In this document: piece by piece, positions 1 through 54,923 of the stretch
How positions within the stretch are numbered: the stretch's first letter is position 1
Layout of the letters: every line of letters starts with the position of its first letter
Assembly (NCBI GenBank): GCA_008330645.1
Contig: VLTN01000008.1
Coordinates: 620,001 to 684,000, forward strand
Reading direction: 5' to 3'
DNA from: Cafeteria roenbergensis
Taxonomy: Eukaryota; Sar; Bigyra; Bicosoecida; Cafeteriaceae
DNA: 64,000 nt
Position numbers and translations under genes: made by a program
Notes under the pieces: generated by a model
What the model saw: only the letters and a program-made list of their open reading frames with translations
Databases searched by the model: none
Told to the model about the DNA's origin: nothing

Positions 1-3000
1 CCACCCCGTCGCCGCCGCTGAACGACGCTCCGCCGTCCACGCTCACGTACACGGGCACGCCGCCCGCCGCCCCAGGCAGCGCGGCCGCAAGAGCGGGGGT
101 CGAGCACGTCACCACGGTTTCGCCCGTCGCGGTCGAGGCGCCGTCCCCCGCGGCCACCACGGCGCCCAGGGCGGGGCGGGCCGAGCCGCCGAAGCGGCAG
201 AGCACCGGAGCGCCCACGGGCAGACGGACGCCGCGCATCGTCACGCGCACAGCGGTGCCTCCGAGCGGGTCCACCACCGTCGGAACAGCGCGGAGCAACT
301 CCGGCGACGCCAGCACCTGAACGGCCAGGCGCGCCAGCGACCAGTGCCTGCCCGCTGTGAGGCTGACCTGCACCGCGGCGCGGGCGCCGAGAGGCAGCGG
401 CGGCATGCGAGCCACCACCGCCTGGCCCTTGGCCGACACGACGCTGGCACGCCGGACGACGTCGCTCCCAACGACGGTCACCCCCACGGCGAGGGCCGCG
501 CCCGCCTCCTGCAGAGCCACGACCCCGCCGCAGCCGGAGGACGACGCCGCCAGCTGCAGGGTCAGCGTGTCCCCGCCCCCGGCCTGCACGGCCGTGGCGG
601 AGGCGGCCACGGCGTCGAGCTCTGCCGCGTACACCACCGACAGGCCTTGGAGCCCGCAGCGCAGGCCCGGGCCGGCGGCCGCGCCCACCGTCAAGCCGGC
701 CGGTCCCGCCGCCAGTTCCCTGCCGTCGGGCAAGTGAGCGGTGACCGCAGAGCGAGCGAGGACGTCGGCCGCGGGGCAGAGGGCGCCCTCTGCGGCGCAA
801 GGATCGCCGGCCCGAAGCCACGCAAGCCCGACCGAGGCGCAGAGGTGCGCCAGCGGGGCCGGGGCGCGGTCCGCACTGCCGGCGAAGCGATCGGCAGAGC
901 CAGACCCGCAGCGCCAGGGGAATGACGTCTCCCTGAGCGCCGCGGTCGCCGCCGAGGCGTTGGGACCCCGCGCCAGCGCCGCCATCACTGCGGAGAGCGA
1001 CGGCGGCGAGCGGCACTCCACCGCGCCGCCGGCAGCTTCCGCGGCCGGCACGGCCAGCGGGCCCACCAGGCACACCGGCACGAGACCGCCGGAGGCGCCA
1101 GTGCTGGCGATGCGGGACCCTTCCAGCCGGAGCGGGCCCGGGCTCGGGCCAGACGGCAACACGGACGGCTCCGCGCGGAGAAGCGTCGGCGCGGCCAGCA
1201 CCACCAAGCCGCCCTCGCCTTCAGCAGTGGAGGCCACGGCCGCCCCGGCGGCATCCAGCAGCTGCACGGCGACGCGACCAGGGGCCATGTCCGCCGGCAG
1301 AGCGCACCGCACAACCAGCTTGCCGCCGGCAGAGCCAATCAGCACCGCCTCAACGGCCGCGGAGCCGCCGAGCAAGCAGCGAAGCCGCCTGCCTGCCGCC
1401 CCAAGCCCCGCAGACACCCAGGCCGGAACGGCAACGTCGATCTCCCCGCTGCCGTCAGCTGACGCCGCAGCCGGGCAGCCGTACGGGACCAAGTCTGTCG
1501 CACTGCGCCCTCCCCACGCGCCAGGCACCACCAGGGCAAAGTCCACCGAACCCGCCGTCGGGGCCACCCCGGTATCGGCGCGGGCGTCGCCAGAAGCGGC
1601 GACCAGCCGCAGCCACGGCCAGACGGGCAGAGCCAGCGGCTGAGGCCCCGCCTTGAGAGGCGCGGTCCACCCGGCCACCCCGGGAACGCCGGGCCCGGCA
1701 ATGTCGATCGTCTGCCCGGTCGGCACAAAGATCAGCCGAAGCGAGGCGCTCCGTGGCCGCCTGGCGGCGGGGCCAGCGCTGCACGGCGGCGCCGCGAGGC
1801 TGGCGAGTCCTTCGGCCGGCAGCACGCATTCCCACACGCCCGACGCTGCGTGGTCCGACGTCAACGACATCCCTGAGGACGAGAGCGCCGCGTCAGCGAG
1901 CGGCAGAGCCGCTGGGACCAGCGAGCCGCGCAGCGTCACGGCTGCGGTTGTCGTCGCCTCGTCGGCCGCCGCCTGGACCTGGCAGGCCAGGTCGGCAGGG
2001 AAGACGCCCTCCGGCAGCGCGGAGACGGAGAGCAGCAACGCGGCGTCGGGGCTCGCTGCCAGGCGGGGCGGGCTCTGGAGCAGCGTGGCGGCGGGCGCAG
2101 TGCGGAAGCACACGCGGTCGCCGCCGCTGGAGGAGCCGAACCCGGTGAGAGCCACGGCAACGTCGACGGCCGACACTGGCAGAGCTGGCGTGGATGTCGA
2201 CAGCACAGAGGCGGTGAGCGCATCCACGGACACCAGCGCAAGGCGCGCGCAAGCCGCCTCCGAAGCCTCAGTCGCCGACAATGGCGGGGCGGGAGCTGGG
2301 CCGGCGGCCGCTGCGGACGCGGCCGACGACGCTGCAGCGGCTGCGAGCGACTCCAGCGAAGTGGGCAGGTGACACGTGACTGCGGAGCCGTTGCCTCGCG
2401 TTGCACGGACGAGCATGGCCTCCCCAAAGGCGACGGTCCGGCCCAACGCCACGGCGCAAGCCAGGCTGTCCGCCTGGGCCAGCACGTCGGCAGAGCCAGC
2501 ATGAACCAGCACCGGCGCAGCTGCGCGCCCCGATCCTCGCAGCACGACGGAGGGCCCCACCACGCGGGCGCTGGACGGCACCGCGACGTCGACGTGGACA
2601 GGCTCCGTCAGCGGCTGCCACGCAGGGCTGGCCCGCACTGCGAGGGCGTCGGCCAGACGGGCGGCCACCGTGTCGTCCACGGCGCCCACCACCACGGTCA
2701 CGCGGTCGCCAGGCGCTCGCAGAGGCGGCAGCGCACACGACACCGCTCCGGGAGCCTCGACGGCCGCGGCTACCAGAGCAGAGGCGGAGCCGGCACCGGT
2801 CCGGGATCCAGACGAAACCAGGCACGCCAGGCTGCTGGCGGCGGCTGCCGGTGCTGCCAGCACCGGAGAGCGCACCTGCACGCGGCCTGGCGACGTTGCT
2901 CCGACCACCGCGGGCGACGCCTCGGCCCCCGTCGCTCGGCCCAGGCCCACCACCGACGCCCACTTGGTGCGGGGGCCGCTGGCGGAGCCGCAGGCCAGAG

Positions 3001-6000
3001 CCACAGAGAACCCGCACAGGGACGGGTTGGTGCACGGCGGAGTCACTTCGCAGCGCCATCCGGCGGCGGTCAGCCGGCCGTCAGTGGACATCGCCGTCAG
3101 CAGCCGCGCCTGGGCCACGGTCTCCTCGGCGGGGCCAGCGGCGGCGCCAGCTCCTGCGCCGGCCTGAACCAGGCAGAACGCCAGCGGCGTGCTGCCGCTG
3201 CGGCCGTGGGTGCCGCTCAAGGCGCTGGACGCGTCGGCGGCGGCGCGCGGACTGCAAGCAAGGGCTCCCCCTTGCCTGGCCGCGACCAGAGCGATGCTGG
3301 CAGAGCCGTTGTGCAGAGCCACGACGCGCGGGGGCATCACGGCAGAGGGCGCAGACGCCACCGGAATGGCTGCGGGCCAGACCGCCCGCGCCTCAGCAGA
3401 TGCGAAGAGGTCCGCGGCGCGCTGGCCGGACGACGCGTCGTCGCCAGGCGCCGACCCCACGGCGACGGCCAGACGCAGGGCGGACACAGCGGCGGGCACC
3501 GGACCGCGCGGCGCGGCGCAGGTCGCTCGGCTGTCAGAGACGGCCGCCAGGGAGGAGCACTGGGCCCAGCCGCCCTCGCCGGCCGACCAGCAGCAGACGA
3601 GGCTGCAGCTGGCGGCCCCGTGGCAGGCCAGGCCGTGCCCACTGACTGACACTCCGCTCCTCGCTGACTCCGCAACCACCACCGACCCAACGTCGACGCC
3701 TGTGAGGGCCGTCGCGGCAGTGAAGTTGAAGCCGGCAGAGCCCATCCACACCGCGCCGCCGTCCACGGACACGCTCACAGGCGCAACGCCAGGCCCAGAC
3801 GCGGACGGCGGGACGCGAGCGCACCTGACGGAGGTTGGGCTGCCGCTGACGGCCACCGCTGGCACGACGGCGTTGCCAACACGGCAGAGCACCAGCCCGG
3901 CCACGCCAGAGAGCTCCGCCGCGCCGGCCAGCGACCCCAGCCCCGCGGCGGACAGGCTGAGCGCAGTCGCGCTCAGGCCAGTCTCCGGCCCGAGTGCCGG
4001 CTGCAGCTGCAGCGGGGCGGCCGCGGGGAGCGGGCGGTAGACGGCGAGCTTGCCCCGCCCCCCCGCGGCAGCAGCAGCTGAGCCGTCTCCAGACAGCGCG
4101 AGCCCCACGTGCAGAGCCGAGCGGGCCTTGGAAGCAGCGCCGTCAGGACCGGCTGCGAGTGCCCTCGACCGAGCCTGGAGGGGCACATCGCACCGCCAAG
4201 TCGGCCCGGCGCCCTCCACGGCCACGGCAGGAGACCACCACTCCCCGTCCGTGTCCCCGGGCGCCGATGTCACGACGGAAAACACGCACTTGGCGCCCAT
4301 GGCCCGAGCCATCGACGCGGTGACGCCCGCTGTCGCGGCCGAAACCGCAACGCTGGCGTGGCCCTCGGACGCCACCAGCGCCGGCCGCACACCCCATACC
4401 ACGGCAGGGGTCGCGCCGCGGCCGCCCTCTGGCAGCACAACGCCGCTGACGCCGGCCGCAGCCGCAGCTGCGGACAGCGCGGCGGCGCAGCCGGCGGAGG
4501 CGCGGCCTGCAGCGGCGGAGCTGCACACGCCGCTCGATGCCGAAGGCAGGTCAGCCGTCGAGGCCAGCGCAACGGCGGAGCCGCTGGGCACCTCGCAGGT
4601 GACACGGCACTCGCCGCCAACGCCGGTCGCGGCCTCCGCCGCCGCCACGGTGGCCACGGTGGCCACCGCGCCAAGCGTGTCCGGAGAGGCAGGGTCGCCC
4701 CTCCAAGCCAAGCAAAAGAGCCGGTCAGCTCTGCCTGCGCCTGCGGCGTCAGCGGCGGCGCACGCCGACTCCGTGGAGCGAATCTGAACGCCGGACACGC
4801 CGCCGCCGACGTCAGTGGTCGCAGTCACGGCCACCGCACGAGGCGCCGGCAGCACGGTGAGGACTGCGCCCGACAACACAGCGAAGCTCCAGTCTGGTAC
4901 AGCCGACCCCTCCACAGAGGCTGGCGGGCCGACCGATCGCAAGGCGGCGACGTATCTTCCCACTGGCAGAGCCGCAACCTCGCACGCGATCAGGTCGTCG
5001 CTTCCGCTGGAGTCACAGGACGCCGTGATGAGGGCCGCGGACTGCCGCCCCGCTGTGGCTGCCTCTGCTGGGAGCAGCGACAGCTCGAGGCGCGCCCCGC
5101 GGGCGGCTGCGACGGACGGAGCCCTCAGCGGCGCCAGTCCGGCGATTCGCACCGCGACGCGCGACCCGGTGCCGGCCGGCGCCGATCCAGCAGCCACGGA
5201 CGACAGCACGGACGCCGGAGACAGACGGGCCACGGCCCCGCTGCGCGACGCCGGGACTGCCCCGACCCACGCCTCGGCGGTGAGGAGGGGCGGCGTCGCT
5301 GCCCCACGACGGACCACGTCCACGGCGACTCGGAACGGCGCCGACCGGGGCACGGCGGCGGGGCATCCGGCCGACGCTGCCGTGATGGCTGCCGACGTCG
5401 GCGCCTCGCAGCGCACAGCATCGCAGCCCGCGGCAGCAGCAATCGTGAGCACACCGCTAGCGCACCCTGCCACCCGCCAATCGCACGCAAGCCCTCCGGA
5501 GGCGAGGGCCGGAATGCAGGTCGCGTTGGACGCCACAGCGGACACCGTGACTGCCCCATGGCCCGAGGGCGGCACCACTGGCGGCGCGACCCTGCCAGCA
5601 GCAGCAGCAACAGCAGCGGCAGTCGCCGCCAAGGCGCTGTGCGACGAGCGCCCAGCGCCGGAAGCGGCCCCGCGGCCCGAGCCAGCGCCCGCGGCGCCAG
5701 CCGCCTGAAGCTGAACACGAGAGCGAGGCCCCAGCAGCTTGAACGCCGCCAGCTCGTCAGCTGAGCTCGCCCCGGCCGCCAGAAGCACCACAGCAAAGCC
5801 GCTGGCAGAGCTCGGCAGGACGCTGCAGCTCTGCAGGTTCCCGTCACCGGCGGCGCCGCCGGCAGCGCTGCCCTGGCACATAGCACCGGCCAACAGGCTC
5901 GCCGACCCGCCGCCCGCACGGCCAGCCAGCAGAGCTGTGCGGCCGAAGGGCGAGGACGCAACTCGCGGCAGAGCCCCAATGGACGTCGGCACGCCGCCGT

Positions 6001-9000
6001 CAAACAGCAGTGCCAACGACGCCGACGCGGCCGCGGTCGCGTCCCACACTCCAACGACGCGGCCAGCAGCGCCGGCAGAGCCGGCAGCAAGCAGGGCGTC
6101 CGCGTCGCTCAATTCTGCAGCACCCTGCCGCGCCTCGACCACGGCCACCAGCAGCAGCGCCGTGCCGGTGAGCGACGCGCCTGGCCGGCACTCGACCAGC
6201 CCGTCGCGCCGCACAGTCGCGTGGAGCACGGCGGGAGGGCCCGACGCGTCGACCCACCTTGCGGTGGAGCCCGGCAAAGCGGTGCTGCTCTCGCCAAGCG
6301 GCGCCGCGACGCACTTTCGGATCCGGCGCGGCCCGCCCGCAGAGCCGAGCGTCACCGGCAGAGCCCACCCGGTGACCGCGCTGCCGTTGACCGTCGTCGC
6401 TACGAACGACCCCGTGCCTGCCGACGCGTCAGCCGGAAGGCAGGCCCGGGCCGGGCTCACCAGCGGTTTCACGCCCACCGCAACCGCGTCAGGGTCGCTC
6501 GACGCCGCGCTTGCATCGCGGCCGATCAGAACAAGGCTGCCGACCAGCCGCTCGGACGACGGCCCCTCGCACGGCACCCCCGGGCCCGAGCAGCCCACGG
6601 TGCCGTCGCCGCGCCAGGCGCACGAAACCGCCGCTGAATCCAGCTCGCACCCAGAGGCCCCAGCCTCCTGCTCCAGTCGCCAGAGCAGCGACGGCGCCGC
6701 CTCACCCAACGACGCGACAACTGCCTCCGGCAGAGCCAGCGACGCCTGGAACGCGTCGGCATCCACCGTCACCGGGCCCGTGCTGGTCGCGTGGCCTCCT
6801 TCGGCAGAGCTCACGACCCGCACAGCGAAGAGCGACTCGCTGTGCTCTGCAGACAGCTGGCGGCCGGAGGCCGCCCAAGCTGGAAGGATTCCCACGCGCA
6901 CCACTGTCGGTTCGGCAGAGCCAGCCTGCGGGCGCGAAGCCGCCCCGAGGCCTTCCAGGCGGCACACGGCTGACACAGCTCCGCCCGGACCGGCCCGTGG
7001 GGAGGCCACGGGTGCCACGGCCAGAATCTGGCCGGCAGCGTCGGCTGCTACGCAGAGCCAGTGCGCCACCGCTGCCTCGCTGACGGCTTGGGACCCGGAC
7101 CCAGCTGCGACAGTCACTGTGAGGGGGGGTGACGCCGACGGCACCCAGACCGGGCCGGCGGTGCCGCCGACGCTCAGCACGCGGGGCGACGCAGCAATGG
7201 TGACGGGCGCCGCCTCGACGGCCAGGGCGCAAGGCGAGAGCGGCGCGGCGCCCTGCGCGCAGGACCCGAAGGCAACCCCGCCGTCCGTGCTGACTGCAAC
7301 TGCGACCCGGCCGGCCGCTGCGACCGCGTCGCGATCCGTCCCGGGCTGCGGCAGGGCGCACACCACGTCTCGCCCGCCCTCCACCAGCACGAAGCCCGGG
7401 GAGGGCGGGGCCGCGCCGATGCGACACACCACGCTGGCCGGGCTGCCGCTGGCGAGCGGGGCCCCGTCCAGCGTGACCATGACTGTGCCGTTGCTCGACC
7501 GCAAAGGCACCGCCGCCGGGAAGACGCCCACCACAGACGGCACGTCGTGCACCTGCAGCAGCAGGGGCGAGAGGGAGCAGCTGGCCCCGGGCTCCGCTGC
7601 AAGCACCACCGAGACGGCCACGAACCGGGTTCCCCTCGGCAGGGCCGGGGATACGCACGAGAGCGCTGCCCCGGCCGCGTCAGCCGACACTAGGGTCGCG
7701 GGCACAACGACGGCGGGCGAGGTCGTCCCAGGGGGCGCGGCCAGCGCAGCCGCGGCGCCGGCCTCACCAGCGCGAGTCGCCGAGAATGCGCAGGCCAGGC
7801 GCCGGCCCCGCAGCGAGGTCCCGGCAGCGAGGACTGAGCGCGCGCTGAGAGTGAGCGTGGAGCCGCCGCTGGACGGGAGCGAGGCCGGCGCGGGACTGGA
7901 CAGCGTCAGGCTCGGCGCCACGGCCACGTCCAGCCAAGGCCCGCTGCTGCCGCTGGCGCTGTCGGCGGGCCCGGCGTCTCCTTGAGCGAGACTGATGCGG
8001 ACCGCCGCAGCGCCCGGCGGCAGCTGGAACCGGCACTCGGCCTCCCTGGCGGCACAGTCGTCAGACACGCACGCGACGACCGCAGGAACGGTTTGAGCGG
8101 CGGCGGCGGCAGCGCCGCCAGCGACGCGGTTGGTGCTGCCAAGCGCCCCGGTGGCACCGGCACCGCTGGCCGCCACCGAGGAGGAGGAAGACGCCAGGAT
8201 GCGGCAGGCTAGACCGCTGGGGACGTCAGGGGCGCCCTGCGGCGCCGGGCCGAGCCCGAGCCGCACGCGGTGCTGGCCGGTGGCCGATGCCGCAAGCGCC
8301 GTCGGGCGCACCGACAGCGCCTGCGGCAGGGGCCGGACCGCCATGCTGTGCCGAGGGAGCGCCAGCGCAGCCTCAAGACAGGCTGCCGTTGGCGCCACGC
8401 ACGGGGCAAGGCCGAGCTCGAGCGTCCCGGGCGACAGCCCGGCGGGCACTTCGCACGAGGCCATGCCGTGAGTCACCCGCTCGGCCGCGCTGGCGTTGGC
8501 GACAGCCGAGCCTGGGAGGCGCAGCGCGCACCACCACGTGGCCATTCCGTTCACGCCGCCGCTTGCAACGGCGTCGCCACCCTCAGTGGTGCTGCCGCTG
8601 CTGCCGCTGCTCGTGCCGGCATCGAGGTCCGCGCCGAGGGCCAGGACCACCCGTCGCGAGGGCGCGCCTGCGACGAGCGTGGCAGGCAGGGTGCCCCGGA
8701 TCGCAACCGCGCTGCGCACCGGAAGCAGCGCCGTGGCGACGTGCGGCACGCGCGCCGACGAGCTGGCGGCGCCGTCGCCACCGGACACCGCCGCCAGCGG
8801 GCGCACCTGCAGCGAGAGGGCGCGGGCGCCGGAGACTGGCAGGTGCCCGGCGGACACGCGCACGGTCAGGTGGTCGCCAGAGGCCGAGCAGGCCTGCAGG
8901 GGCACGTCGATTCGCGAGGCAGCCGCACGGCTCCACGCCGACAGCGCCAGCGCAGCGCCGCACGCTTCCAGGCTGCAGCCGGCCCCCGCCTGGCTTGCGG

Positions 9001-12000
9001 GGCACGCGCGAGCGACCAGTCCGGCGGGCGCGCGGAACACCACGGCCACGCTTGCCGCCGCAACGCTGGCCGGGGCCTCGGGCAGCAGCAGGGTGTCGGG
9101 ATCGGCCACAGCGGCCCAGGCTGCTTGGTCGCTGGCGGAGTCGCGCGCAAGCTCGGCAAGCGACGCCGCGTCGCTCCACGAAGTGGCGACACACGACGCC
9201 TCCACGCATGGGCCCTTCCCGGCAGACGAGTTCAACCGCACTGCCAGCCGCAGCCGCGCCCCGGCGCCCACGCCAGCCTGCAGCGGGCACCACACGGCGT
9301 CGCCGCCAGGTCCCAGGAGCGCGCCCGGCACCACTGCGCGGACCGCCGCCGCCTCGGGCGCCGAGGCGACGACGCACTCCACCGCAGCGACGCTGCCGCC
9401 GCTCCCGACAAGGCCGGAGGCCCACGCCTCCAGGGCAGGCCTCACGCGGACCGCCACACCCGTCGCGCCGCCGTCGCCAGAGCCGGGGGCCAGCGCCACT
9501 ACGGGGCGGTCAACCACCACCGACGGCAGGACCGGCCACGCCAGCGACACGACGGCCGAGAGCGCAGCGCCGCCGCCAGCCTGCCCCAGGGCCACGGTCA
9601 GGAGGCCGTTGGGCACCGGCCGCTGCAAGGCCGGGAGGCGGCACGCAATCGCCCCCGCGACGGCCGACAGGACTCGGCCCTCCGCCACCACCTCGCCGCC
9701 CGGGCCGGCGGACAGCACGCAGCGCAGAGAGCCCGCGGGCACGGGCAGAGCCCCGGGGGACGTCCGCACCACCACCGAGCCCTCGCTCGACCAAGGCGAC
9801 GGGGGCCACGCCGAGGAGGTCAACAGCGACGTCGACGGGGCAGCCGACGCGGCGCCGCCGGCGAGCCCAGACGGCGGGACGGCGCCCTGCGCCTCGGGCA
9901 CCGCCCACGCGACCAGCGACCCCGCCGACGACCACGCGCCGGCTCCTCCCCCTGCTCCGCCGCCGCTGTCCGCCGACCCCACCGCAACCGACACGTCCCA
10001 CGCGCCCGGCTCCAGCGCAGCTGCTCCCAGGGCGCCCGCCTCCCCGCAGGGTTCGGCGTCGCTCAGCAGGCATGCTGCGGTCCAGTGGCTCTGCGCCTCC
10101 GAGGCCTCCACCGAACACCTCCGCACTTCCATGCAGGCCGAGCCGCGAACCAGACGAGCGCGGGCTGCCGTCGGGAGAGCCGATGCGCTGAGGCCGGGGG
10201 ACGAGACCCACACGCGCAGCTGGCGCGCAACGGACTCCCACGGGGCGGAGGAGCCGCTGGCCGCGCCGCGGCCGAGGGAACGACGCAGGGGCAGGGAAGG
10301 GGGCTGCAGGCTCGCGCCCAGCCGCAGCGGGTCGGCCAGCACGGGCATGGACCCGGCCACGGCCAGGCCGTTGCCGGCGAGGCCGGCGGGGCCGTGCCGC
10401 ACTTCCAGTGTGCAGTTGGCTTGCCCTGAGAGCGGCGCGGTGGCCAGGAGGCAGAGGCCCTCCCCGTCACGAACCACGAGCGCGCTGCCTGGCGCCGGCG
10501 CCGGCAGCCCCGGGCACTGCACGCTGCACTCCAGCGCGTCCTGGGCGGCCAGCGAGCCCGGCAGCAGCAGCGGCACCGCCGCCGATGGCGCCACCGGCAG
10601 CCGCACGGGCGACGCGTGCGCAGGCGCCGACGAGGGCGGCTCGCCCGAAGGATGGGCCCGCGCGAGCGTCACGGGCGGAAGGAGCTCCACGGCGAGCGTT
10701 TCCGCGGGGTCGGACGCCACCGTCCCCGCCAGCCCCACCGACAGGCTGGCGCTGCCCGGCCTGGCCGAGGCCGGGACAACGACGTCGCACTGGAGTGCCG
10801 TGTCGCCCAGAGTGACGGCCACGCCCGGGACGGCTCGCCCGTCGTCCAGCAACAGGCTGCACGCGGGAGCGCGCGCCAGCCCGGCCTGGAAGCCCACCCC
10901 ATGCACCAGGAACCGCGCTGGCTGGCCCAGCCTGCCCACGGACGGGTGCACGGCCGCGACGGACGGACGATCGACCAAGGCGAGGGACGCCACGGACCCC
11001 TCCATAAGCGCCGCGCGAGCGACGCAGGGGACCGAAAAGGCAGCTGCCTCCGCAGCGGCGGGCACCACAGCCACCATGATCGCAGAGGCGGCGCCGCTGG
11101 CCGCCGCCGAGCGGACAGGGCACTCCACCACGCCGGACGCCACGTCAACCGCCGCCGCGGGAGCCGCCGTCCCGGCCACGGCCGCCACGGCGCTCGCCGG
11201 ACACGCCTCCGTCGCGGCCAGCTGCACGCACTGCAGGGGCCCGTGCGCAAGCGACAGCCCCTCCAACCGCAGCCTCACGGCGCGACCGGCGCCGCCGTCG
11301 CGCGCCGGCCCTGCCAGGAACACCCGCGGCTCTGCGCTGACCACCCTCAGCGCCGGCAGAGCCACGAGCGGAAGCAAGCGCACGGCGCCCGCGTCCGGAC
11401 TCGGCAGCGCCGCTGACCAATCGCAAGCGTCGGCGGAGGCACGCACTCCCGGCCCCGCCAGCGCCACGCAAAGCTCCACCGCGCCCAGGCGTCCCGGCAG
11501 CGTGCCGTGCCCCGCGGCCGGGAAGGCGCAGCGCACGCGCGGGAGCCCGTCCGCGCCAGCCGCAGGCAGAGCCGATGCAGAGCCGCGGAGCGGAGTGGAC
11601 GACGCGATGCCCGACGACGCCTGGCGCGGCCTCGCAAAGCAAGCGACGTCGGCCATCGGCGGCAGAGCCGCCAGGCTGCCAGCCAGAGTCACTGAAATCG
11701 TAGCGGGAAGCCCGGCAGCGATATGGCGCGGCGACACGCCGATCACACGTGCAGTCGGAACCACCATCACCGCGGCATCGTCGCCCAGGACCAGCTCTTG
11801 CCCGGGCAGGCGCAAAACCAGCGTGACGGCGGCCCCAGGCGCCACCGCCGCAGCGGAGCTCTCACAAGCAACCGCAGAGCCAGCAGAGGCCGGCGAGGCC
11901 ACCGCTCGCCGCAGGGAGCCAAGCGGCCTCTCGGGCGCAAACGCCGGGCCGTCTGCTCGGTACTCGCAGCCAAGCTCGCCCGCCGCGGCCGCAGCTGCCA

Positions 12001-15000
12001 GCAGCGACCCGGCCGCGGGCGACGCCCCCCACAGCAGGTGCCTCACTCGCTCGCCGCGGGCAACGGACCTGCCGGTCGCGCTGGTGGCGAGCACGCTCCC
12101 GGCGGCCAGCGGCCGGCTCAGCAGCACAGACGAGCGCCCAACATCGGCGCCGTCCCCGGCAGAGCCCAGCGACGGCGACCACACCCTGACGGAGCGAACA
12201 TCGGCATCCGCCACGCCGGGGCCACCGCTCAGGCGAAGCGACTCCGGCAGCGTGCACTCGACCTCTGACGTGACTCCGCCGCGCGCGAAAGTGCCAACTG
12301 CGACGTCGGCTGACACGGTAACTGCGCTTCCCAGAGCCTCCACGGTGGTGTGCCCCATCTCGAACACGCAAACCGCGGGGCGCGACGACGCCCCGCCGAG
12401 GCTACCGCCGCCGGCAGGGCCGGTGGCCCCTGGGGCGCCAGCGAGCGCGGCGGCGGCTGCGGCCCAGGCGCTCCACTTGGCACGGAGAGTGACGCTCGGC
12501 ATGGCGCCGGCCACTGGCACCACCAGCGCCGCGGGGGCCACGGCCACCGGCGACGAGAGCTCCAGCAATCGATAGCTGGCCCTGCCTGCGTACAGAGGGA
12601 CGCCGCCGGCAGAGCCAATCTGCAGCCGCACGTCAACCCGCGCCTCCGCCAGCTCGACGTCGGGTGCGCCGCCGGCCGACACCACCGCAGCCAGCGACGG
12701 CGCCCGGCACTCCACGACCGCGCCCGCGGAGGCGGTGGCGACGGTCGGGCCGGAGCGGCTCGCCTGCCCGGCGGATACCGCAGCAGGGGCGGGCACACGG
12801 CCCGCGCCGAAGAGGCAAACCGCCCCGCTGGCGGCCAGCGCGGCGGCCAGGCTGTCGCCTGAAGAGGCTTGCAGCTCCACCCGCACCGCGCCCCCTCCCG
12901 CAGCGTGCAGGGCGGCGCCGCCTTCCACGACGGTAGCTTCCAGCGGCAGCACGCGCAGAGCGTGGCTGGCGCCCGGCTCCCCCGCGGACCACAGCGTTTC
13001 GCCAGAGTCGCCGGCCAAGCCGGCGCCGTCGGCCCTCGTGATGCCCAGGGACAGCTGCGTCGCTCCGAGCGCGACGCCGCCCTCTGGCACTGCGCACACG
13101 ACACTCCTGCCGCCCATGTCGGTGGAGATGGCTGCAGAGCTGGTCAGCGGTGCGGCAGAGCCGTCCGTAAAGAAGCCACATCGGACGGACAGCCCATCGG
13201 CGGCGGCGGCGGGAGGGAGCAGCGATGCGTCGCTCAGCGCCAGCCGCACGCGGTCGCCTGGGCGGGCCAGGACGCGGTCCACGGCTCCGAACGACAGAGC
13301 CGGCGCGATCCAAACTGCCGCTGACGAAGCTGACGTCAGCGGGAGGAACGACGCGCCGCCGTGCAGAGCGGACTCGGAAGGCGCCCCGTGAGGGGCGTTC
13401 AGGCAGCCGCCAGCAGCACCGGCAGCCCTGGAAGCAGCGGCCCCGGCCAGCCCCCTGCCAGCAGCGGTGGCGTCGCCCGTCTTGAGCCACAGCCGGAGGA
13501 AGCGGCGGCAGAGCCCTGAGCGGCAGTCGGCCGCGCCAGTCACCTGCGACGGCACTCCGCAGCGCACCCCGCCCATACCCCCGCCCGAGATGTGGTTCGC
13601 CATGTGGCCGGTCGCTCTGGCCACGCCCGCTGCGCCGGCAATGTCGCCTTCCGGGCTCGTTGACCAGGCGCACACGACCGCGCCGCCGCCCAGCGGGGCC
13701 AGGCCGGACAGGAGGGCAGACCCTGCGCCTCGGATGGACACTGCCACGGTCGCGCCGTCCGCTGCAGCGGCTCTGCCGACCACCCTCGGGCTCACGTCGG
13801 CCTCTGCCCCCGCCACAGCAAAGACGATCACGGTGGCCGGGCCAAAGGGCGTGTCGGCGGAGGCAGCGACTGACACCGCAACGGGGCAGCTGGCCGCCCC
13901 CGGCTCGCACAGGGCCTCCGCCCGCGGCGCAGTGCAGGCCAGCCGGCCGTCGGGCGCTACCTCCGGGTCTGTGCAGCCGAGGCGCGCACCGGTGGCGCCC
14001 TCCAGCACCACGCGCGGCGAGCGCTCGGGGCCCACCGGGGTGCCGCCTTCCGGGCCAGAGACCGCTCCGGGGGCCGGCGTGGGGGCCTGCAGGAAGGCCC
14101 AGGGCGCGAACCCGTCCCCTGAGAGGGCGACACGGGCCACTGCGCCGCTGGCGAGGACGCCGGGCGAAGCGGCGGCCACGCGAGGGGGAGGGACCACCAG
14201 GAGCAGGGCGCCGCCGAGGCGGTGGAACGCTACGCCGCCGTCGAGACTGACCGACATCGAGTAGGCGCCAGGCCCAATGCCTCCCGCAGAGCCAGCACCG
14301 GAGCACACCACGGAGGCGCTGGCGGCAGAGGCGCCCGCCGCGAGCTCCACCCACGCCGGCCACTCTACAGCCACGGGCACTGCAGCTCCCTGCAGCTGCA
14401 ACCGGCAGCGCGCAGGAAGTGAAGTGGAGGGCCCCGCAGAGCTGTTGCCGCCGCGCTGCGAGTCGGCAAGCGACTCCGACACGCGCACCACGATGCGCTC
14501 GGACCCTGCCAACACGGCCGACGGCTCTGCCGATGCCACCGACGGCAGGATCACCTGCGTGGGGGTCGCCATCGCCGCGCGAATGGCGGCCTCGCTGAAA
14601 TCTGCCCCGTTCAACGCCGAAACGAGCTCCTCGGCAGAGCCGTGGTCGCCATCCGCCGCCACGACAGCAACGCCGACGGAGGAAGGCACGCCGTCGCATT
14701 TGACGGCCAGCGGGCCCACAGGGGACGCTGCTCCGGCCCGCCACGTCGGTCCGTTGGCTTGGCTGCGCCAAGCGCAGGCTACGACCGGGCCAGGGGCGGC
14801 GACCAGCTCCAGAGTGGCGGCGCCGACGCGGTCGCCCCCCGCGCCAGTCTGCGCCCCGCTCGACACCGAGACGGTGGACGCGCCCGTCGCCAGGGCGCTC
14901 GGCCTGAGTGGCCGCCGCGACCGAACGCTGCCACTCAGCACCGCGCCTGCGCCCGCGCCCACCGCCAGCCGCAGCTCGCAAGGCCACCTGCCCCCGCACG

Positions 15001-18000
15001 CCCTCCCTGGGCACAGCACCAGAACGCGCCCGCCATCGCCGCCATCGCCGCCTACCGTGACAGCTCCCGCGACGCGGCCCCCGGCGCCGACGCAGGCCAC
15101 GGCCACACGCTCGCTGGCAGGGCCACTGCCCACCAGCGCCCGCGCTGCCTGCTCCGAGCCGACGGACAGCTGTACGATGACGTCGTTCGAGTCGGAGGCG
15201 ACGTCGGCAGCGTCGACAACCGGCGCATCTGGTAGCACAAGCAGCGCTGACGAACCGAGAGCCACGGTGCCGCCGGCCTCAGCGGCGCTCAGACGGAACA
15301 GAAGCCCTGGCGCTTGGGCGCCGGAAGCGGTCGCGCCGCACGCAGCAGTGAAGCGACAGACGACTGACCCCGGCCCCACGCCAGCGGCAGCCGAGTACTC
15401 CGCCGGGAGCTCCTCGCACCCGCTGAGGACGGCGCCCTGGTCGGCAGAGCCGCTGGGATGACTCGCGAGGCTGCAAGCCAGCCCAGGGACCGACCTGCCC
15501 TCGGCAGCGGCAGCCGCCGCCCTGAGCCAGCTTGCAGACGCAGACGACGTCACGGGCAGCGCAACCGTCGTGCCTTCCGCCGGAGCTGCCACAGCCAGCA
15601 CGTCACCAGCCGCAGGGCCAGCGGTCGATGAGGAGGAGGCGGTAGTGGCGGCGGCTCCGGCTGCGGTGGCATCACCGCCGGCCCCCGGCCACAGCCAGGC
15701 AGAGGCGTAGTCCGACACGGACGACAGCTCCTCCTCCTCGGCCGCGCACCCCAGCTCGCTCGAGGCAAGCAGAGCCCGCACCCGCACGCTTGATGGCAGA
15801 GCCGAAACGGCGGTGCCAGACTCGGCAGAGCCGACTACAGATGCGGGCAGCGCTGCACAGGACACGACAGCGCAGCCGCCTCCGGCGCAGCTCGGGAACA
15901 CCTCGGCCCGCGTGCACAGCGGCCCGCTTGGAAGCACCCACTGGCAGAGCGCGCCGGAGGAGCCGGCGGCCACCGCGACCACGGCAGCCAGAGGTGCCGC
16001 GTCGGCGGTGCCCGCCGCCGCCTCCAGCCGCAGCAGCTTGCGTCCCGGCCCCAGCCACAGCGCGGACGGGTCGACCAAGCTCGCGGCCGGCGCAACGACG
16101 GAGACCAGGTCGGCCTCCGCGGCAGGATCCGGAAGGGTCGAGGGGTGCCACTGCGCGGCCGCGCCGGCCAGCGCCGTCTGGTCGAGCGACGCGGCGTCGG
16201 TCCCGCTGAGCAGAGCCAGCCGCAGCCGACGCACCGCGGGCGCAGCGGCCCGCCCTTCGCCTGAAGCCGGTGCGGCCGCTCCCGGGACGGGGCACTGGAA
16301 CCCCCCGCCGTCGGCCTGCGCGCTGCTGGGCAGAGCCGGGGTGACGAGCCGAAGCGCGCAGGCTCCCAGAGGGCCCTCGCACCAAAGGCAGCTCGCGCCT
16401 GCCCGGGCCAGGGCCCCGTCCGTAGGCGCAACTCGCAGCTCCACCGGCGCCGGCCGGGCTGCGTCGAGCAGAAGCGCGCCTGCGCGCGACACTGCCGGGC
16501 CACCCGCCGACGTGGCTGAGCCGTTGGCATCGACGACGGCAGTCGCAGACAGCACAAAGAGAACGGTCACGGAGGGCGATCCTTCCGGGCAGAGTGCGAC
16601 CTCGTGCTCCGGGCCCGATGGCAGCTCGGGGACCGCGCACACCTGCACCGCGGCCGACGACGCGCCCTCCGTCGACGAGGCCACCTGCAGAGCCGCGGCG
16701 CCCGCGCACACCACCTCGGTGGCGGACACCCAGAGAGCGCCGCCCGCATGCGCGCAGCCCCGCGCGCCGCACGCGAGGCACGACAAGGCGCCCCGCGCCC
16801 CGTCAGCTGACTCGAAGGCCCCGCTGAGGCGCAGCTGCGCCGCCGCGGCGGCGGCAGAGCCGCGGGCCGATCCCTCCGGCAGAGCCAGGAGCACGCTGGG
16901 CGACACCGCCGACGCCAGCACCGCAGGCCGCAGCACAAGCAGCGGCGCCGGCCCCGCGCGCGACACGGCTGCCCCGGGCAGGGCCCACTCCACGCGGCAG
17001 GCGAAGCCGCTTCCCCGCGCTGCCGGCTCCGGTGCCGACGAGCGCGCGGCCGCCACGGCCTCGGGCAGCGCCGCAGTCATCACGCGGGACCCGGAGCGTG
17101 ACACCGCGCTGGTGGCAGTGACGTTGCCGGTGCAGCGGAAGCGCAGGGCAGGCAGGGGCCCGGTCCACACCGGCTCAACGGACTCGGACACGGCGAAACG
17201 AACCGCCGCGTGTCCCATGGCAGCGACGGAAGCCACAGGCGGAATGGTGCGAGCCGGCAGAGCCAGCGGAACGGACACGAGCGACCCGCCGGGCGCCCCG
17301 CGAACCTCAGCCGAGACTGTCAGGGCAGCGCCGCACGCCCACACCGGGGACGCCGCGGCAGGAACGCTGCACGTGAGAGACGCCCCCGTGGCGGGGCCCG
17401 TGGCAGCGGCCAGCGTGGTCTCGCTTGTGCCGGGGCACCCGAACCGGCACGCCCTCGACCCTTCCAGGCCCGCCACGGATGCGGCCGCGGCCTCCTCCGT
17501 GATGCGGATTGTGATCCGGTCCTCTGCGGCGGCGCCCTCGCAGGCGTCGCAGTCGGGGACAGCCTCAAGCGGCGTCGAGGCGCGCGAGGTGCGCTCTGCC
17601 ACGGCCGCCGCCGGCTCTACCGAAGTCGCGTTGAGAACGAGCGACGCCAGAGCGACGCTCCGGGCGCTGTTGGGGACGTCCTCCGCCACAGTCTCTCGAG
17701 CCGCCCCGTCACGGCCCAGCGTCGCACCGTCGCGCTGGCTCAGCCAAACAGTTGCAAAGCCGCTGCCCCCTCCCTCACACAAGGGAGCCGCGCACTCGAC
17801 CCAGGCGGGCAGCGCGCTGCCAGCAGCCGGGCGGCGGAATGCTGCCGGCGAGCGCATCGCAGCGCCACGCCGCGCCAATCCAGCCCCCTCCCACACGCAG
17901 TCCAGCCGCAGGGCCGGCGGCAACACAGCCGGAGCCGGCGACGCCCCGGGCGCGGCCAGGGCCAGCCGGGCCAAGGACCCGCATGCCACCGGCTCCGTCA

Positions 18001-20585
18001 CGGGGGCAAGGCGCGGCTCTGCCACGGCCTCCATGTGGAGGTCGGCAGCAGCAGCGGCAGGCGCCGGGAGGAGCACTGCGGGCGCGTCGAGCCGCCAAGC
18101 GGCCCGCAGCAGCAGCGGCCCTGGCCGCAGCGCCGCAGCGCTCGCTGCCGCCGGGAGGTGAGCTGATGCTGTCAGCACTGACACCTGCAGCGCGGACGGC
18201 TCCAGCGAGCCAACCGCTTCCACGCCTGCATCGGCAGTGACGGTGGCGGCAGGGCCGGTGGCGGCGGGGCCAGCGGCGGCGGGGGGGGGCGCCGGCCCGG
18301 ACCAGACCGCGCGAACCGATGCGGGGAGCTCGAGCACCGGCTCTGCCTCGCCCGGCAGGCGCAGCTCGAGCGCCAGCCTCAGCGGCGTGGACCGGTTGGC
18401 TGCCAGCCGGCGGAGCCACGCGGCCGGGGCAGCCGTGGCGAGCGTGACGGTCAGCGTCGAGGCCCGGCCCAAAACCAGCACCGACCCCGTCACGGCCTGC
18501 GCCGTCACCGGAGGCAGCAGCACGGCCGGGGCCCAGCTGGGGTCTGCGGCGGAGCCAGCGGAGCGGCCCGCCAGCGCGGCCAAGAGTCGCTGCGTGGCGC
18601 CCGCTGCCGCCACCGACGCTGCCTGCAAGGCTGCCCCGACGTCAACGTCGGCTGCCGCCAGCATCACCGGCAGAGCTGCAGCGCACGCCTTGCTCGGCGC
18701 GACTGAGCCTGGGGCGCAACGCGCCCACGGTGCGAGCGTGTGCCCGCCAAAGACACCCGAAAGCGCGCCGGCGGACGGGACCGCGTCAAGCGCCTCGGGG
18801 ATGGGGCACAGCCACGACGCGGCGTCGCTCACCGCCGGAGCGACGCGCCCTCCCACAACGCACAGCATGCCGCCAGATCCGACAACTGGCAAGGTATCAT
18901 GCAGAGCCCGAACGGCCAGCTTGGATCCTTCCGACACCACCCCCAGCGCGGAAGCCGGCTCCGCCGCCGCGGACGCTTGCACGGCCACGGCCAGGCTGGC
19001 AGCGCCGGCAACGTCGAGCCGGACGGTCAGGCGAGACCGCAGCCCCGCGCCGCGCAGCCCGGCACCGGCGCACGGACAGAAGACGCCGACGGACCCGTTG
19101 CGCTCCGCGAGCACGCCAGCCACTGACGTCGCTGCCGGCGCCGCCGCAAGCGGCTCGAACACGCAAAGCGCGGTCGGCAGAGGCGAGCCCTTCCCACACG
19201 CGCTCCAGCCCCTCGGCAGAGCCGCGCCGGCCGGACCCTGCGGAGAGGCCGGCGCGGCGCCGCAGTCGGCCATGCCTGGAATCAGGAACGGCCCTGCAGA
19301 GCCGGCAGAGCCCCCCGCAGGGCAGTGCAGGCGGGTGTCGGGCCCGCACTGCAGGGCCCCGCTGCCGCTGCCGGCGCTCACGACGCGGAGGGCGGCGGCC
19401 TCAAGCACGGACGCCCGGCGGCCCCGCAGCACCACCAGCGACGCCAGCAGCACGCTGCCCGCGGCTGCGTCTGCGCCGCTCCTCGGGCTGGCTGGGCAGA
19501 GCACCCGCCCGTCGTCCTCCACCGCGAGCGGGGACGCCAGCTCGGCCGACCCGATGGCGCACAGGATCCGGATCCTTCCATCCGCAAGCGCCGCGGCAGA
19601 GCCGTTGACCCCGGCCGAGGCGTCTCCCGGGAGAGCTGCGCCGCCTCCGGGAAGGCCAGACACGGTGAAGACCACGACGGCGTCGGCCGACGCAGCGCCT
19701 GCCGGGAGGGCGCGCGGCTCAACGCCAACGATGGCGAGGGGGACGCGCGGCTCTGCCCCGGCAGCCATATCGAGGCGGATGGCAGGCTCGCTGTCTGGCA
19801 GAGCCTGCTCCCCCACCGCGACGGCGACGCGGCCGGGCTGCCAGCTCGAGCGCGCCGCGCCGGCGAGCGGCCCCGAAGCAGCCAGCTCTGCCAGCTCTGC
19901 AGGGTCGCTGCACGGGGGGCCTCCGAACACGCGCAGGTCGTCGAGGAGCCCGGCGGCGTCCGAGGCGTCAGCGAGCGCGCGGAAGGCGGCCAGCGCGCCC
20001 GGAGGGGCGAACATGCCGCAGGCTGCGGCGGGCGTGCCGGCGCCCACGATGAGGCCTCGGCGCACGGCCAGGGCCGACGCCACCGCCCCGCTGCACTCGT
20101 CCTCCGCCCCTGGGCCGTCAGCCGACCCCGGGCAGAGCGATGCCGTTCGCACGTCGATGGTGAGCAGCCCCTCCCCTGAGGTGGCGTTGGGACCAAGCCC
20201 GCGCTCGGCGGCGTCGGGATCCTCCACCTCCGCCCCGAGCAGCACAGACACGCCGCGCCCCGACGGCGGCGGCCCGGGAACAAACAGCGACGACGATGAC
20301 GAGGACGACGACGACGAGGACCCCGCAGGGCCGGAAAGAGACCCTGGCGAGGCAAGGCGCAGGCCGATCGCAAGAGCAGCCGACACCCTGCCGGCGCCGT
20401 CCGCCGAGCTGCACCGCAGCGGGCCCGGCATCGCCCCGGCAGAGCCGTGAGTCTGCAAGGCGCTGGCCAGAGCCTGGCGGCTTGCGTCGGCGGCGGACGC
20501 GAGCCAGTCGGCGTCCCACGCCGCGAGCGGCGACTCCGCCGCCGCAACTGCAACCACCCCGTCCACGACAGCCGCGCCGCCAGCA

Positions 20586-20624
<39 letters not shown>

Positions 20625-23548
20625 CCCACCGTGAGGCGGAGCTGCCCGTCAGCGGCCCCTCCCCGGGCAAGCCTCGCCGCGGCGCCGACGCGCTCGCCGC
20701 GCACCGCCGTCTCCGTGCCCGCCGGCGCCGGTCCGACCGCGCACAGCCGCACTTCTGCCAGCGGTGGCAGAGCTGCGTTCCCAGCGGCGGGCCGCAGCAC
20801 CCGCACCTCTGCCGCCAGCGGCCTCGCGTCCGTGACGGCCCCGTCCATCGCGTCGGCAGCCGGAAGCAGCGGCAGCACCGACGGCCCCTCGCCCGCGCAG
20901 CGGGGCACCACGCGGTCTGTAGCGCCAGACACGCCCTGCAGGGCCGATACAAGCAGAGCGCCTTCGCCTGCAGAGGCGACCAGGCTTCTCAGGTCGAGGC
21001 CGCAGGCGGCAGCGGGGAGGCTGCCGTTCCCGCCCAGACACACAGCCACGGCCGGCGGCAGCTCCGCCAGCCCCGCGAGCAGCAGGGCCGAGGCGCCGTC
21101 GGCGGATAGATCGATGGTCGCGCCGCCGCGGGGTCCGGCGCGCACCGACCAGGCGTCCGACGCAGGGAGCGACGCGGCGACGGCGCACCTCCGCGGGAGC
21201 GGCAGCGGGAGGCGGACATCGGTCGGCGCCCCGAGAGCAAGGCGCAGCCGGGCGGCGGTGGCCTCACTGCTGGCCTCGCCGGCGCCGGGCACGGCCGCGA
21301 GCAGCGGCCGCAGCCGCGGAAGCACCGCCTCCGCCACTCGCCAGCGCACGGCGACTGCCACGGCCGACGCCGCGGACGACGCTCCGCCGGAGAGCGAAAC
21401 CGCCGCCACGGCCGGCTCGCCGGGGCCCCCCTGCCCCGCGCTCACGTCGACGGACGACCCGCCGGAGGTCAGCCTGACGCGGCCTACGGCGGCTGGCAGC
21501 AGCGACGACAGCCCCGCGCTGCCAGCCCCCGGCGAGGAGGCCGAGGCCGCCGCCGCCGACGACGACGCGCCGATGCGAACGACAGCCTCGCTGCCGCAGT
21601 CCCCGGCGTCTGGCAGACGCCCACCCGGCAGAGCCGCTTCCGGCAGAGCCACCGGCACCATGGCGTCCCTGTCCGCCTCGGCCACCAGCTCCTGCCCCCG
21701 CAGCAGCCGCATGCGGCGGCCGGACCACTGCGCGCGGAGCACCTGCCCCTCGCCCCGCTGCGACGGCAGCGCCCACAGCTGCCCGGGCGTCCACACGTGC
21801 CAGCCGCCGCCCCTGCCTCCAGCAGCGCCGGTGCCGGTGCCGGCGCCGCCCGCAGCGCCGCCCGCCCCGCCGGTCAGCGGCAGCCGTACCGTCAGTCGGC
21901 CGGCCGCGCCCGCGTCGCCGGTTCCGTTGCCGCCCGCTCGAGGCACCAGCTCCAGCCGCCAGTCCGGGCCGCGCTGGGGGGCGCTGTCGCCGCACCCGCG
22001 CTCCGCGAGAGTCCACGCGCAGGAGGCCGCGCGCCCATCCGAGGCGCAGGCTTCCATAGCGCCTGGCCGCAGCCACACCTCCGCCTCCACACTCTGCCAC
22101 TCAGAGGGGCCGGCGGGGCCGTCGCGCGAGCCGCCGCTGTCGCCCGCAGCGGTGGCTGGGGCAGCCGTGCCCGCCTGCACCAGCGGCCCCTCAAGCTCCA
22201 GCCACGCCGCGCCGTGCAGCGGCAGAGCTGCGCCCGCCGAGCCACCGGCAGCGGCCTCCGCTGCCCGAACCAGGTCCAGGTCCAGGGCAGAGCCAGTCTC
22301 CGCAGCGCCGCTGCCATGAGCGGCGCTAGCTGCCTCGAGCGCCAGGCCGGCCGGGGCGGCGGCGCTGGCGGCGTGGCCGGCAGCGAGGCCGGCCACCGCC
22401 AGCCGCAGCGGCGGGTCGGGCGCCTGAAGCCACCGCCAGGACCCCAGCGACGCAGTGTCCAGGGCGGATCCCAGCAGAGTCACTTCATCAATCGCCCCAC
22501 GGAAGGCAGCCAGAGGGCCCTGGTCGCCCGCGGCCCCGCCGCCGGCGCCGCTGGTCGGGGCGCAGGCCCCTGCCTGCACGCCGCCGAAGCGGAGCCGCCC
22601 GTCGGCAGAGCTATTGCCGGCAGAGCCGCCTGCGCCGGCAGGGCCGCACGCACGGACCATGCCCACCACAGGATCGGCGCGCATGCGAGCAACGCTGGCG
22701 ACGGCGGCGGCAGCGCCGTCCACGGCCGCGCTAACAGTTCCGTCCGCCGCGTACGACGCAGCAACGAAGCGCCAGCTGGAGGTGACGTCGCCGATGCCAG
22801 CCGCTGCCGGGGACGTCTGGGACGGCACCAGCACCAGGCCCCACAGCTCGGAAGGGTCACTGCCCCCTGGTGTGCCTGGCGAGGCGCCGCCGACGCCGGC
22901 AGCGGCAGCGGCAGCGGCAGCGGCAACGGTGTTGGCCGGCAGAGGCCTGGCCAGCGGGGCAACGACGGCGTAACCGCCAGCCGGCCCGGGCAGCGCCGCC
23001 CTGGCCGCGCGACGCTCCGCCGGCGGGTGTGACGGCGTTCCCACCGCCACCAGCGCTCCCCACTCCCCAGTCGACCGGAGCACGCAAGCGCCGCGAGCGT
23101 CGCCGCCGGGCCCCACAGCAGCGACAGCACACTCCCAGGCCTCCGGGGAGCCGGCTGCGGTGCCGCCGCCGCCGGACCACGAGGCCCACAAGCCGAGCGA
23201 CGCGGCGGGCAGAGCCCTCCCGACCGCAAGAGTGCCCGAGGGCGAGACCGCGCCGCCGCCGAACCAGAGCGCCCTTCCCACGACGCCGGTTGCGCCCGCC
23301 GAGAGGGGGAAGGCGGGCTCCGCCGCGGAGGCGGCTTCAAAGTCCCAGCGACCCAGGATCGGGCCCAGCGGCGCTGACGCCGGAGTCTGGGTTGGGCTGG
23401 ACGCAACGGCGCCTGTCATGGCTGTCGCTGATGCGGCTGGCGCGAGGGCCGCCGCTGCCAGGACGAGGAGGGCCACAGCCGCGGCTGCTGCGCGGGGAGC
23501 GCGGGCAGCCCGTCGGCTGCGATGGCGAGATAGCGGGATCGCGCGCAT
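1..23548 (-). CDS. Giant secreted/surface protein with LamG-like and IPT/TIG-like domains (3' end outside window)
   Basis: The minus frame starting at ATG 23548 has no stop down to the left edge, giving at least 7,849 codons in one exon. It opens with basic residues and a hydrophobic run (AVALLVLAAAALAPAASA), a clear signal peptide. An in-frame ATG at 23419 would lose that peptide, so 23548 is preferred. Residues about 60-390 look like a LamG/concanavalin-A jelly roll, with GRWDFEA near the start, WRFVAASYAADG in the middle and FRGAIDEVTLLGSAL at the end. A second LamG-like unit follows at about 440-640 (AWLELEGPLV, VLRAQWSGRRMRLL). Much of the rest consists of Cys-poor beta-type segments. 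Several have the IPT/TIG pattern, for example V.VS.DGG.SF and VLCRFGGSA near the left edge and YSMSVSLDGGVAF near 14240. Poly-Ser and poly-Ala tracts interrupt it. It is probably a cell-surface adhesin-like protein. The C-terminus, which could hold a membrane anchor, is not visible. Confidence 0.85.
20586..20624. repeat. GAC trinucleotide tract (13 copies) coding poly-Ser
   Basis: A perfect run of 13 GAC triplets lies on the plus strand and reads as consecutive TCG serine codons in the giant minus-strand gene. A shorter, imperfect run of the same type is at about 20287-20322. These are likely flexible linkers and potentially length-variable. Confidence 0.8.
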
Positions 23549-54632: not shown

Positions 54633-54923
54633 CGCGAATCCCGCGCCCCGGCTAGGCAAAGGTGCAGGCGGGCGAGCCAGGGGCCAGCACCGATTGCCTT
54701 GACAATGCGTGGCCTGGCAGTGGTCTGCGCGAGCCACATCCGGCAGCCGAGGCGCCTGGCCAGCGCGATCGCCACACTCGCTTCCGTTTGCCGGCGGCTC
54801 TGCTTCGCTTGCCACGCTCAGTCCGCACGACCGTCACTCGATCAATCTCCGCGAAGCAATCCTTGAGCAGTTCGCCAGGGCCACGCACGCTGAGAGCTCC
54901 TGACGCGCCAGCACGCCGGTCCC
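54633..54923. other. Intergenic region between two minus-strand genes
   Basis: This 291 bp contains the promoter of the RCC1-repeat gene and the 3' flank of the TTC39-like gene. The RCC1 gene's frame stays open to 54815 without an ATG. No distinct element was recognised. Confidence 0.4.

What the first reader, a model, noticed from the sequence alone, without database searches (positions are those of the whole stretch)
1..23548. A 23.5-kb stop-free exon coding a protein of at least 7,849 residues
One minus-strand frame starts with a clear signal peptide and two LamG-like folds and stays open to the left edge. IPT/TIG-like patterns recur to the very end of the visible frame, which shows that it is coding and not chance openness of GC-rich DNA. 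Single-exon genes of this size are rare, and the domain order (LamG then a very long TIG-type array) is not one I recognise.
Basis: partly seen in the sequence, partly recalled or inferred. Interest (0 to 1): 0.75.

Follow-up and report, generated by a model that had tools for sequence, protein, structure and literature searches.

The report
Giant 16,651-residue membrane-anchored surface protein gene
A single uninterrupted 50-kilobase frame of a marine flagellate, probably Cafeteria burkhardae, appears to encode one of the larger proteins known, a very long chain of Ig-like domains fixed in the cell membrane by about eleven helices, probably a surface adhesion or sensing tether.

Summary
The minus-strand frame runs past the window's left edge to a TGA at contig C8:593593-593595: from the ATG at window 23548 it is 16,651 codons without a stop, 50 kb in one frame. 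It is coding. Over residues 1-12,900, 64 of 64 windows prefer this frame by codon usage, and TIG-like domains occur in this frame (32 at E<0.01) and in 0 of 5 other frames. Outside the window the frame has Cys-rich ephrin-receptor-like repeats, about 11 transmembrane segments and a 729-residue tail without cysteine. Two other giant frames of this genome (13,585 and 8,336 codons) carry TIG domains upstream of the same membrane module, so it is probably one gene of a small family. The TIG array is real; the LamG reading stays below thresholds. LamG-then-TIG order does recur in 6 other giant frames here. Best reading: a roughly half-micrometre cell-surface tether for adhesion or sensing. The transmembrane module matched no Pfam or PDB sequence family. 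Transcripts were not available.

The parts
2..23548 (-). N-terminal 7,849 codons of a 16,651-codon gene that continues left of the window to C8:593593 (stop TGA)
23549..24478 (-). in-frame open stretch of 310 codons upstream of the first ATG; no in-frame ATG in it; in-frame TAG at 24479-24481. Presumed leader, not coding
23423..23548 (-). start codon in context GCCGCCATGC and signal-peptide-like N-terminus (hydrophobic peak residues 20-38)
22394..23365 (-). residues 62-385: LamG (concanavalin A-like) candidate, below the significance thresholds
2..14545 (-). degenerate TIG/IPT array, residues 3,002 to the window edge; it goes on to about residue 13,250 outside the window (36 domains at E<0.01 in the whole protein by the iterated profile, one of them at 1,272; 19 of 35 start-to-start distances are 96-154 residues, the rest longer)

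Best explanation
One nuclear gene, with no intron detected, of a heterotrophic stramenopile (most likely Cafeteria burkhardae strain BVI) encodes a single giant membrane protein of 16,651 residues. A signal peptide sends the N-terminus out of the cell. About 13,000 residues, largely TIG/Ig-like domains, form a long stalk (inferred: roughly 100 units of about 4 nm, some 0.4-0.5 micrometre). A Cys-rich ephrin-receptor-like neck joins it to about 11 transmembrane helices, and an Arg/Glu-rich, cysteine-free tail lies in the cytosol. It most likely works as a surface tether that binds prey, substrate or another cell at its far end and passes the contact to the cytoskeleton through the tail. Shown here: frame, coding, order of parts, paralogues. 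Inferred: topology, length, adhesion or sensing role.
For: Unbroken 16,651-codon frame with TGA. Codon test 64 of 64 windows and TIG domains in this frame only. Pfam TIG at 55.3 bits and Ephrin_rec_like at 23.7 bits, just over its cut-off of 23.1, in the part outside the window. TM cluster at residues 15,379-15,923 in the hydropathy of three aligned paralogues. 93 Cys and 16 N-glycosylation sequons in residues 13,001-15,380, 0 Cys and 2 sequons in the 729-residue tail. Paralogues on C3 (46.5% identity over 1,393 columns in the Cys-rich part, 32% over 1,392 columns in the TM part and tail) and C10 (26% over 962 columns in the TM part) each hold TIG domains upstream in the same frame. In C. burkhardae strain E4-10, IPT, laminin G and fibrocystin-L domains are enriched among genes raised in stationary phase, classed there under cell adhesion or signal transduction (PMC7852580, Table 2 and its section read).
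Against: No transcript or protein evidence. The window's own Pfam TIG score is below the cut-off (18.7 against 20.9 bits), so its TIG claim rests on a profile made here. Long stretches hold no called TIG domain, e.g. residues 1,391-3,001 and 9,595-11,152, so the count of about 100 units is extrapolated. The AlphaFold model of the TM part failed (pLDDT 34), so TM number and topology rest on hydropathy; the positive-inside count is weak (inside loops 30 K/R in 207 residues, outside 7 in 78). Residues 1-12,900 have no BLASTP match at E<=1e-4 to either paralogue. The C3 paralogue's Cys-rich part shows no Ephrin_rec_like match at E<=0.01.
Confidence: 0.72

Rival explanations
1. Two or more genes that happen to lie in one open frame: a secreted TIG protein and a separate multi-TM protein.
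For: Base composition changes near residue 13,000 (third-position GC 0.836 in residues 1-12,900, 0.949 after 13,300). Residues 1-12,900 have no BLASTP match in the paralogues while the rest does.
Against: Both other paralogues have TIG domains and the TM module in one frame, and C3 shows the same kind of third-position step (0.689 to 0.773). Among the 30 in-frame Mets of residues 12,701-15,370 I saw by eye none with a convincing signal peptide ahead of the Cys-rich part; 12,733 is the least unlikely candidate; no signal-peptide program was available. No stop in 16,651 codons.
Confidence: 0.1
2. It is the axial strand of a flagellar hair, as MST3 is in Chlamydomonas mastigonemes: a long extracellular strand fixed in the ciliary membrane by a TM domain with a long cytosolic tail.
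For: Same overall plan as MST3, which has a large extracellular part, a PKD2-like TM domain and a 1,600-residue intracellular C-terminus (PMC11015965, passages read). Anterior-flagellum mastigonemes are a stramenopile hallmark (PMC11412368, passages).
Against: No PKD_channel match in the TM module, though 20 matches to that family at E<=0.01 lie elsewhere in the genome. Pro is only 8.1% of residues, so an MST3-like polyproline strand is unlikely. Stramenopile hairs are tubular and tripartite, those of Chlamydomonas glycoprotein filaments.
Confidence: 0.15
3. A force-gated channel or receptor-like transducer: the stalk pulls on the TM bundle, which signals or conducts. This does not exclude the tether reading.
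For: About 11 TM segments with a sequence conserved in three paralogues; a huge ectodomain on a polytopic membrane part resembles polycystin-1 (recalled).
Against: No similarity to any channel or receptor family in Pfam or PDB sequences at a meaningful E-value; no usable structure.
Confidence: 0.2
4. Chance openness of GC-rich DNA, or a decaying pseudogene.
For: GC 74-78% over window 1-24000 lowers the stop frequency; antisense frames reach 1,683 codons.
Against: Codon, frame and TIG tests all single out this frame; 0 stops in 16,651 codons.
Confidence: 0.02

Closest known systems
Fibrocystin / fibrocystin-L (PKHD1, PKHD1L1)
   Same: Long array of TIG/IPT domains on a signal-peptide-bearing surface membrane protein (recalled); fibrocystin-L and IPT domains are reported in C. 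burkhardae transcripts (PMC7852580).
   Different: Fibrocystins have one TM helix and G8/PbH1 regions (recalled). Here there are many TM segments, and no G8 or PbH1 match at E<=0.01 in 6 of 6 pieces scanned.
Chlamydomonas MST3 and polycystin-1
   Same: Large extracellular part joined to a polytopic TM domain and a cytosolic tail; the MST3 paper itself likens MST3 to human PKD1, both with Ig-like domains (PMC11015965, passages).
   Different: No PKD_channel match in the TM module; overall Pro only 8.1%.
LamG-TIG giant frames of the same genome (C2 7,933; C8 7,937; C83 7,959; C67 4,803; C31 6,656; C80 5,842 codons)
   Same: LamG upstream of TIG in one open frame, 6 of 6.
   Different: Each has at least one LamG match over the Pfam cut-off (33-85 bits) where the window's has none; only C8:595-598 kb, C3 and C10 matched the window gene's TM module.
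Other giant protist proteins
   Same: Size class: T. gondii's largest protein is 17,226 residues (PMC10993292, passages).
   Different: The passages seen name HECT, ankyrin, AAA, synthase and other domains, not TIG. Titin and the PKZILLA proteins are larger (recalled).

Membership tests
TIG/IPT domain (PF01833) | Score above the Pfam cut-off of 20.9 bits | tested here: met
   55.3 bits in residues outside the window. The window part alone reaches 18.7 bits, below the cut-off; a profile made here finds 32 domains at E<0.01 in residues 1-12,900, in this frame only.
Laminin_G_3 (PF13385) | Score above the cut-off of 27.6 bits | tested here: not met
   14.1 bits, E 0.052; not among 62 whole-genome matches at E<=0.1; other tests suggestive only.
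Ephrin_rec_like (PF07699) | Score above the cut-off of 23.1 bits | tested here: met
   23.7 bits, only just over the cut-off (23.3). Paralogue C10: 25.3 bits in one piece, 20.4 in another. Paralogue C3: no match at E<=0.01 in L015 and L014.
Polycystin / PKD_channel (PF08016) | Match of the TM module to the channel profile | tested here: not met
   No match in 3 of 3 paralogues at E<=1; a whole-genome search gave 20 matches at E<=0.01, none at these three loci.
Fibrocystin | Single C-terminal TM helix, G8 and PbH1 regions (recalled) | tested here: not met
   Many TM segments; no G8 or PbH1 among Pfam hits at E<=0.01 in 6 pieces.
Mastigoneme axial protein (MST3-like) | Location in flagellar hairs | not testable with these tools
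   Needs localisation.

The most novel reading that the evidence does not exclude
The shared C-terminal module of about 11 helices is an undescribed family of membrane transducers or channels, and this genome pairs it with very long Ig-like tethers (up to 16,651 residues): a protist mechanosensor unrelated by sequence to polycystins.
Probability: 0.2. Interest if true: 0.8.

Novelty: new variant of a known kind. Interest (0 to 1): 0.52.

Why it matters
If transcribed as one mRNA, it is a 50-kb coding sequence without a detected intron, close to the 17,226-residue largest protein given for T. gondii, and it tests how far single-exon genes, translation and secretion can go in a small cell. It also gives a three-member family with an unnamed multi-TM module in a marine grazer, a direct candidate for how such cells attach to surfaces or recognise bacterial prey.

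Tried and rejected
AlphaFold of the TM module with three paralogues: pLDDT 34, not used for fold search. AlphaFold of the LamG candidate seeded with seven LamG domains of this genome: pLDDT 41; Foldseek best E 0.2, pentraxins first, then mostly other lectin-like folds; not accepted as proof because the alignment itself was LamG. Relatives of the TM module in viral contigs and genome contigs: none confirmed by tblastn (59 and 51 pattern matches); eukaryote genomes are not in these collections, so this says little about spread. A second genomic copy of window 13001-14500: single match, itself (the tool skips common words). A tRNA-Gly called inside the gene was not supported by Rfam at gathering thresholds and is taken as spurious. 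SSU rRNA identification failed twice. Chance openness and pseudogene were rejected. PDB sequence search with the TM module: best E 0.44 and 0.74, treated as noise; a DUF2914 match at E 0.05-0.09 in one member likewise. Paper searches listed no paper on this protein in the rows shown, which are only part of the papers found; apart from the five papers cited, papers were seen as listings only.

Full report
Observation. The window is C8:620001-684000 of a 36,303,456-base, 167-contig genome. The frame of the finding is open from window 24478 to the left edge and, in the neighbouring sequence, on to C8:593596, followed by TGA. Stop to stop it is 16,961 codons. The first in-frame ATG is at window 23548, in the context GCCGCCATGC, and gives 16,651 residues, of which 7,849 lie in the window.

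Organism. Size, contig number and GC fit Cafeteria burkhardae (published as C. roenbergensis) strain BVI: 170 contigs, 36,327,047 bases, 70.1% GC (PMC6972860, passages with Table 3). This is an inference; the rRNA searches failed. That paper reports 1.67-1.89 introns per gene on average, so a 50-kb frame without a detected intron looks unusual there. An intron of a multiple of three bases without stops cannot be excluded without RNA.

Is it coding? Over residues 1-12,900 the other five frames hold 151, 86, 69, 33 and 143 stops and this one none. A codon model trained on the conserved C-terminal parts of this gene and of its two paralogues prefers this frame in 64 of 64 windows of 600 nt. A TIG profile, started from five seeds (three from C10, two from this protein beyond residue 12,900) and iterated on the two paralogue genes, finds 32 domains at E<0.01 in residues 1-12,900 of this frame. 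It finds 0 in each of five other frames, 0 in each of five shuffles and 1 in the reversed sequence. After iterating on the protein itself the counts are 34 here, 0 in 5 of 5 other frames, 0 in 5 of 5 shuffles and 4 in the reversed protein. 20 of the first 32 begin in the window.

Anatomy. Residues 20-38 form the hydrophobic core of a signal-peptide-like start. Residues 62-385 look like a LamG domain by eye, but the tests stay short: Pfam 14.1 of 27.6 bits, own-genome profile E 0.007 against a best of 0.014 in 20 shuffles, sliding profile scan ranked first of 164 windows at probability 1.7%, model pLDDT 41 with best fold matches at E 0.2. From residue 3,002 to about 13,250 TIG-like domains recur. 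The iterated profile at E<0.01 in the whole protein, one of them apart at residue 1,272; 19 of the 35 start-to-start distances are 96-154 residues, the others 173-1,730. Two of the 36 are seeds. Pfam alone scores the window part of the array below its cut-off (18.7 of 20.9 bits) and the part beyond the window above it (55.3 bits). If unrecognised stretches hold units of the same size, about 100 units are expected; this is an extrapolation. Then come Cys-rich repeats (Ephrin_rec_like, 23.7 bits against 23.1), and about 11 hydrophobic segments at residues 15,379-15,923 (the number 11 is my reading of hydropathy and of a low-confidence model). Last is a 729-residue tail with 137 K/R, 129 D/E and no Cys. 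Residues 13,001-15,380 hold 93 Cys and 16 sequons, the tail 0 and 2, which fits outside before and cytosol after the membrane. Loop charges support this only weakly (30 K/R in 207 residues inside, 7 in 78 outside).

One gene or several? The genome search with the TM module found this place and two more, on C3 (E 8e-160) and C10 (E 4e-54). The C3 frame is 13,585 codons from its first Met, the C10 frame 8,336 codons, with a further 2,007-codon frame just upstream in another phase. Both have TIG domains upstream of the module (42 in the C3 frame, 56 in the 8,336-codon C10 frame). C8 and C3 align at 46.5% identity over 1,393 columns in the Cys-rich part and 32% over 1,392 columns across the TM part and tail. 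Three of three members with the same order argue against chance in-frame neighbours. Against that, residues 1-12,900 show no BLASTP match at E<=1e-4 to the paralogues, base composition shifts near residue 13,000, and the C3 Cys-rich part has no Ephrin_rec_like match at E<=0.01.

Order of domains. Frames that have both LamG and TIG matches occur on C2, C8 (first 35 kb), C31, C67, C80 and C83. In 6 of 6 LamG lies upstream of TIG (joined here by contig, strand and frame length; both lists are lower bounds). The order is therefore a habit of this genome, not a singular event.

Mechanism. The best-supported picture is a giant cell-surface tether: far-end head, TIG stalk of perhaps 0.4-0.5 micrometre (inferred from about 100 units at 4 nm, the latter recalled), Cys-rich neck, polytopic membrane part, cytosolic tail. 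In C. burkhardae strain E4-10, IPT, laminin G and fibrocystin-L domains are enriched among genes raised in stationary phase and were classed under adhesion or signal transduction (PMC7852580, one section with Table 2 read); whether this gene is among them is unknown. Rivals are a flagellar-hair axis like MST3 (PMC11015965, passages), a force-gated transducer, and separate genes. The TM module matches no Pfam family at a meaningful E-value and no PDB sequence. It is not a PKD_channel by Pfam, although that family is present elsewhere in the genome.

Novelty. Giant surface proteins with TIG arrays are a known kind (recalled: fibrocystins), and T. gondii has a 17,226-residue protein (PMC10993292, passages), so size alone is not a record. 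The combination of a TIG stalk of this length with an unnamed multi-TM module in a single 50-kb frame is, as far as I could search, a new variant. No paper on it appeared among the rows listed; the GenBank annotation of this assembly and eukaryote protein databases were not available to me.

Noticed in passing
window 45744-54815 (-): Second large frame (3,024 codons) with RCC1 repeats (Pfam 450.7 bits RCC1-like), TIG and a weak ELAPOR1-like TNFR match; the codon signal of the same frame seems to continue upstream to about 57,700, across stops, so the gene may be longer.
   Followed up: partly
C10:646994-677984 (-), loci L020-L023: Paralogue with near-identical repeats of about 837 bp (three TIG domains each) and a break of frame between 2,007- and 8,336-codon frames inside the repeats: an assembly slip, an intron or a real break.
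   Followed up: partly
C2, C8:14-35 kb, C21, C51, C67, C80, C83: Family of similar giant frames with LamG and often TIG matches (the largest about 7,930-7,960 codons); those on C8 and C67 lie near a contig start, so possibly a subtelomeric surface-protein family.
   Followed up: no
C1:800995 (-): An 11,064-codon open frame with a LamG match below the cut-off (26.1 bits); perhaps another giant gene.
   Followed up: no
C8:575003-591727 (+), loci L013, L009: Open frame of at least 5,575 codons, reaching the edge of the fetched stretch, convergent with the giant gene and ending 1.9 kb from its stop.
   Followed up: no
window 21558-21654 (-): ARAGORN calls a tRNA-Gly inside the coding frame; Rfam finds nothing at gathering thresholds, so probably spurious.
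   Followed up: partly
window 36858-42434 (+): Strongly coding 1,859-codon frame of an ABC transporter with two membrane and two ATPase parts.
   Followed up: no
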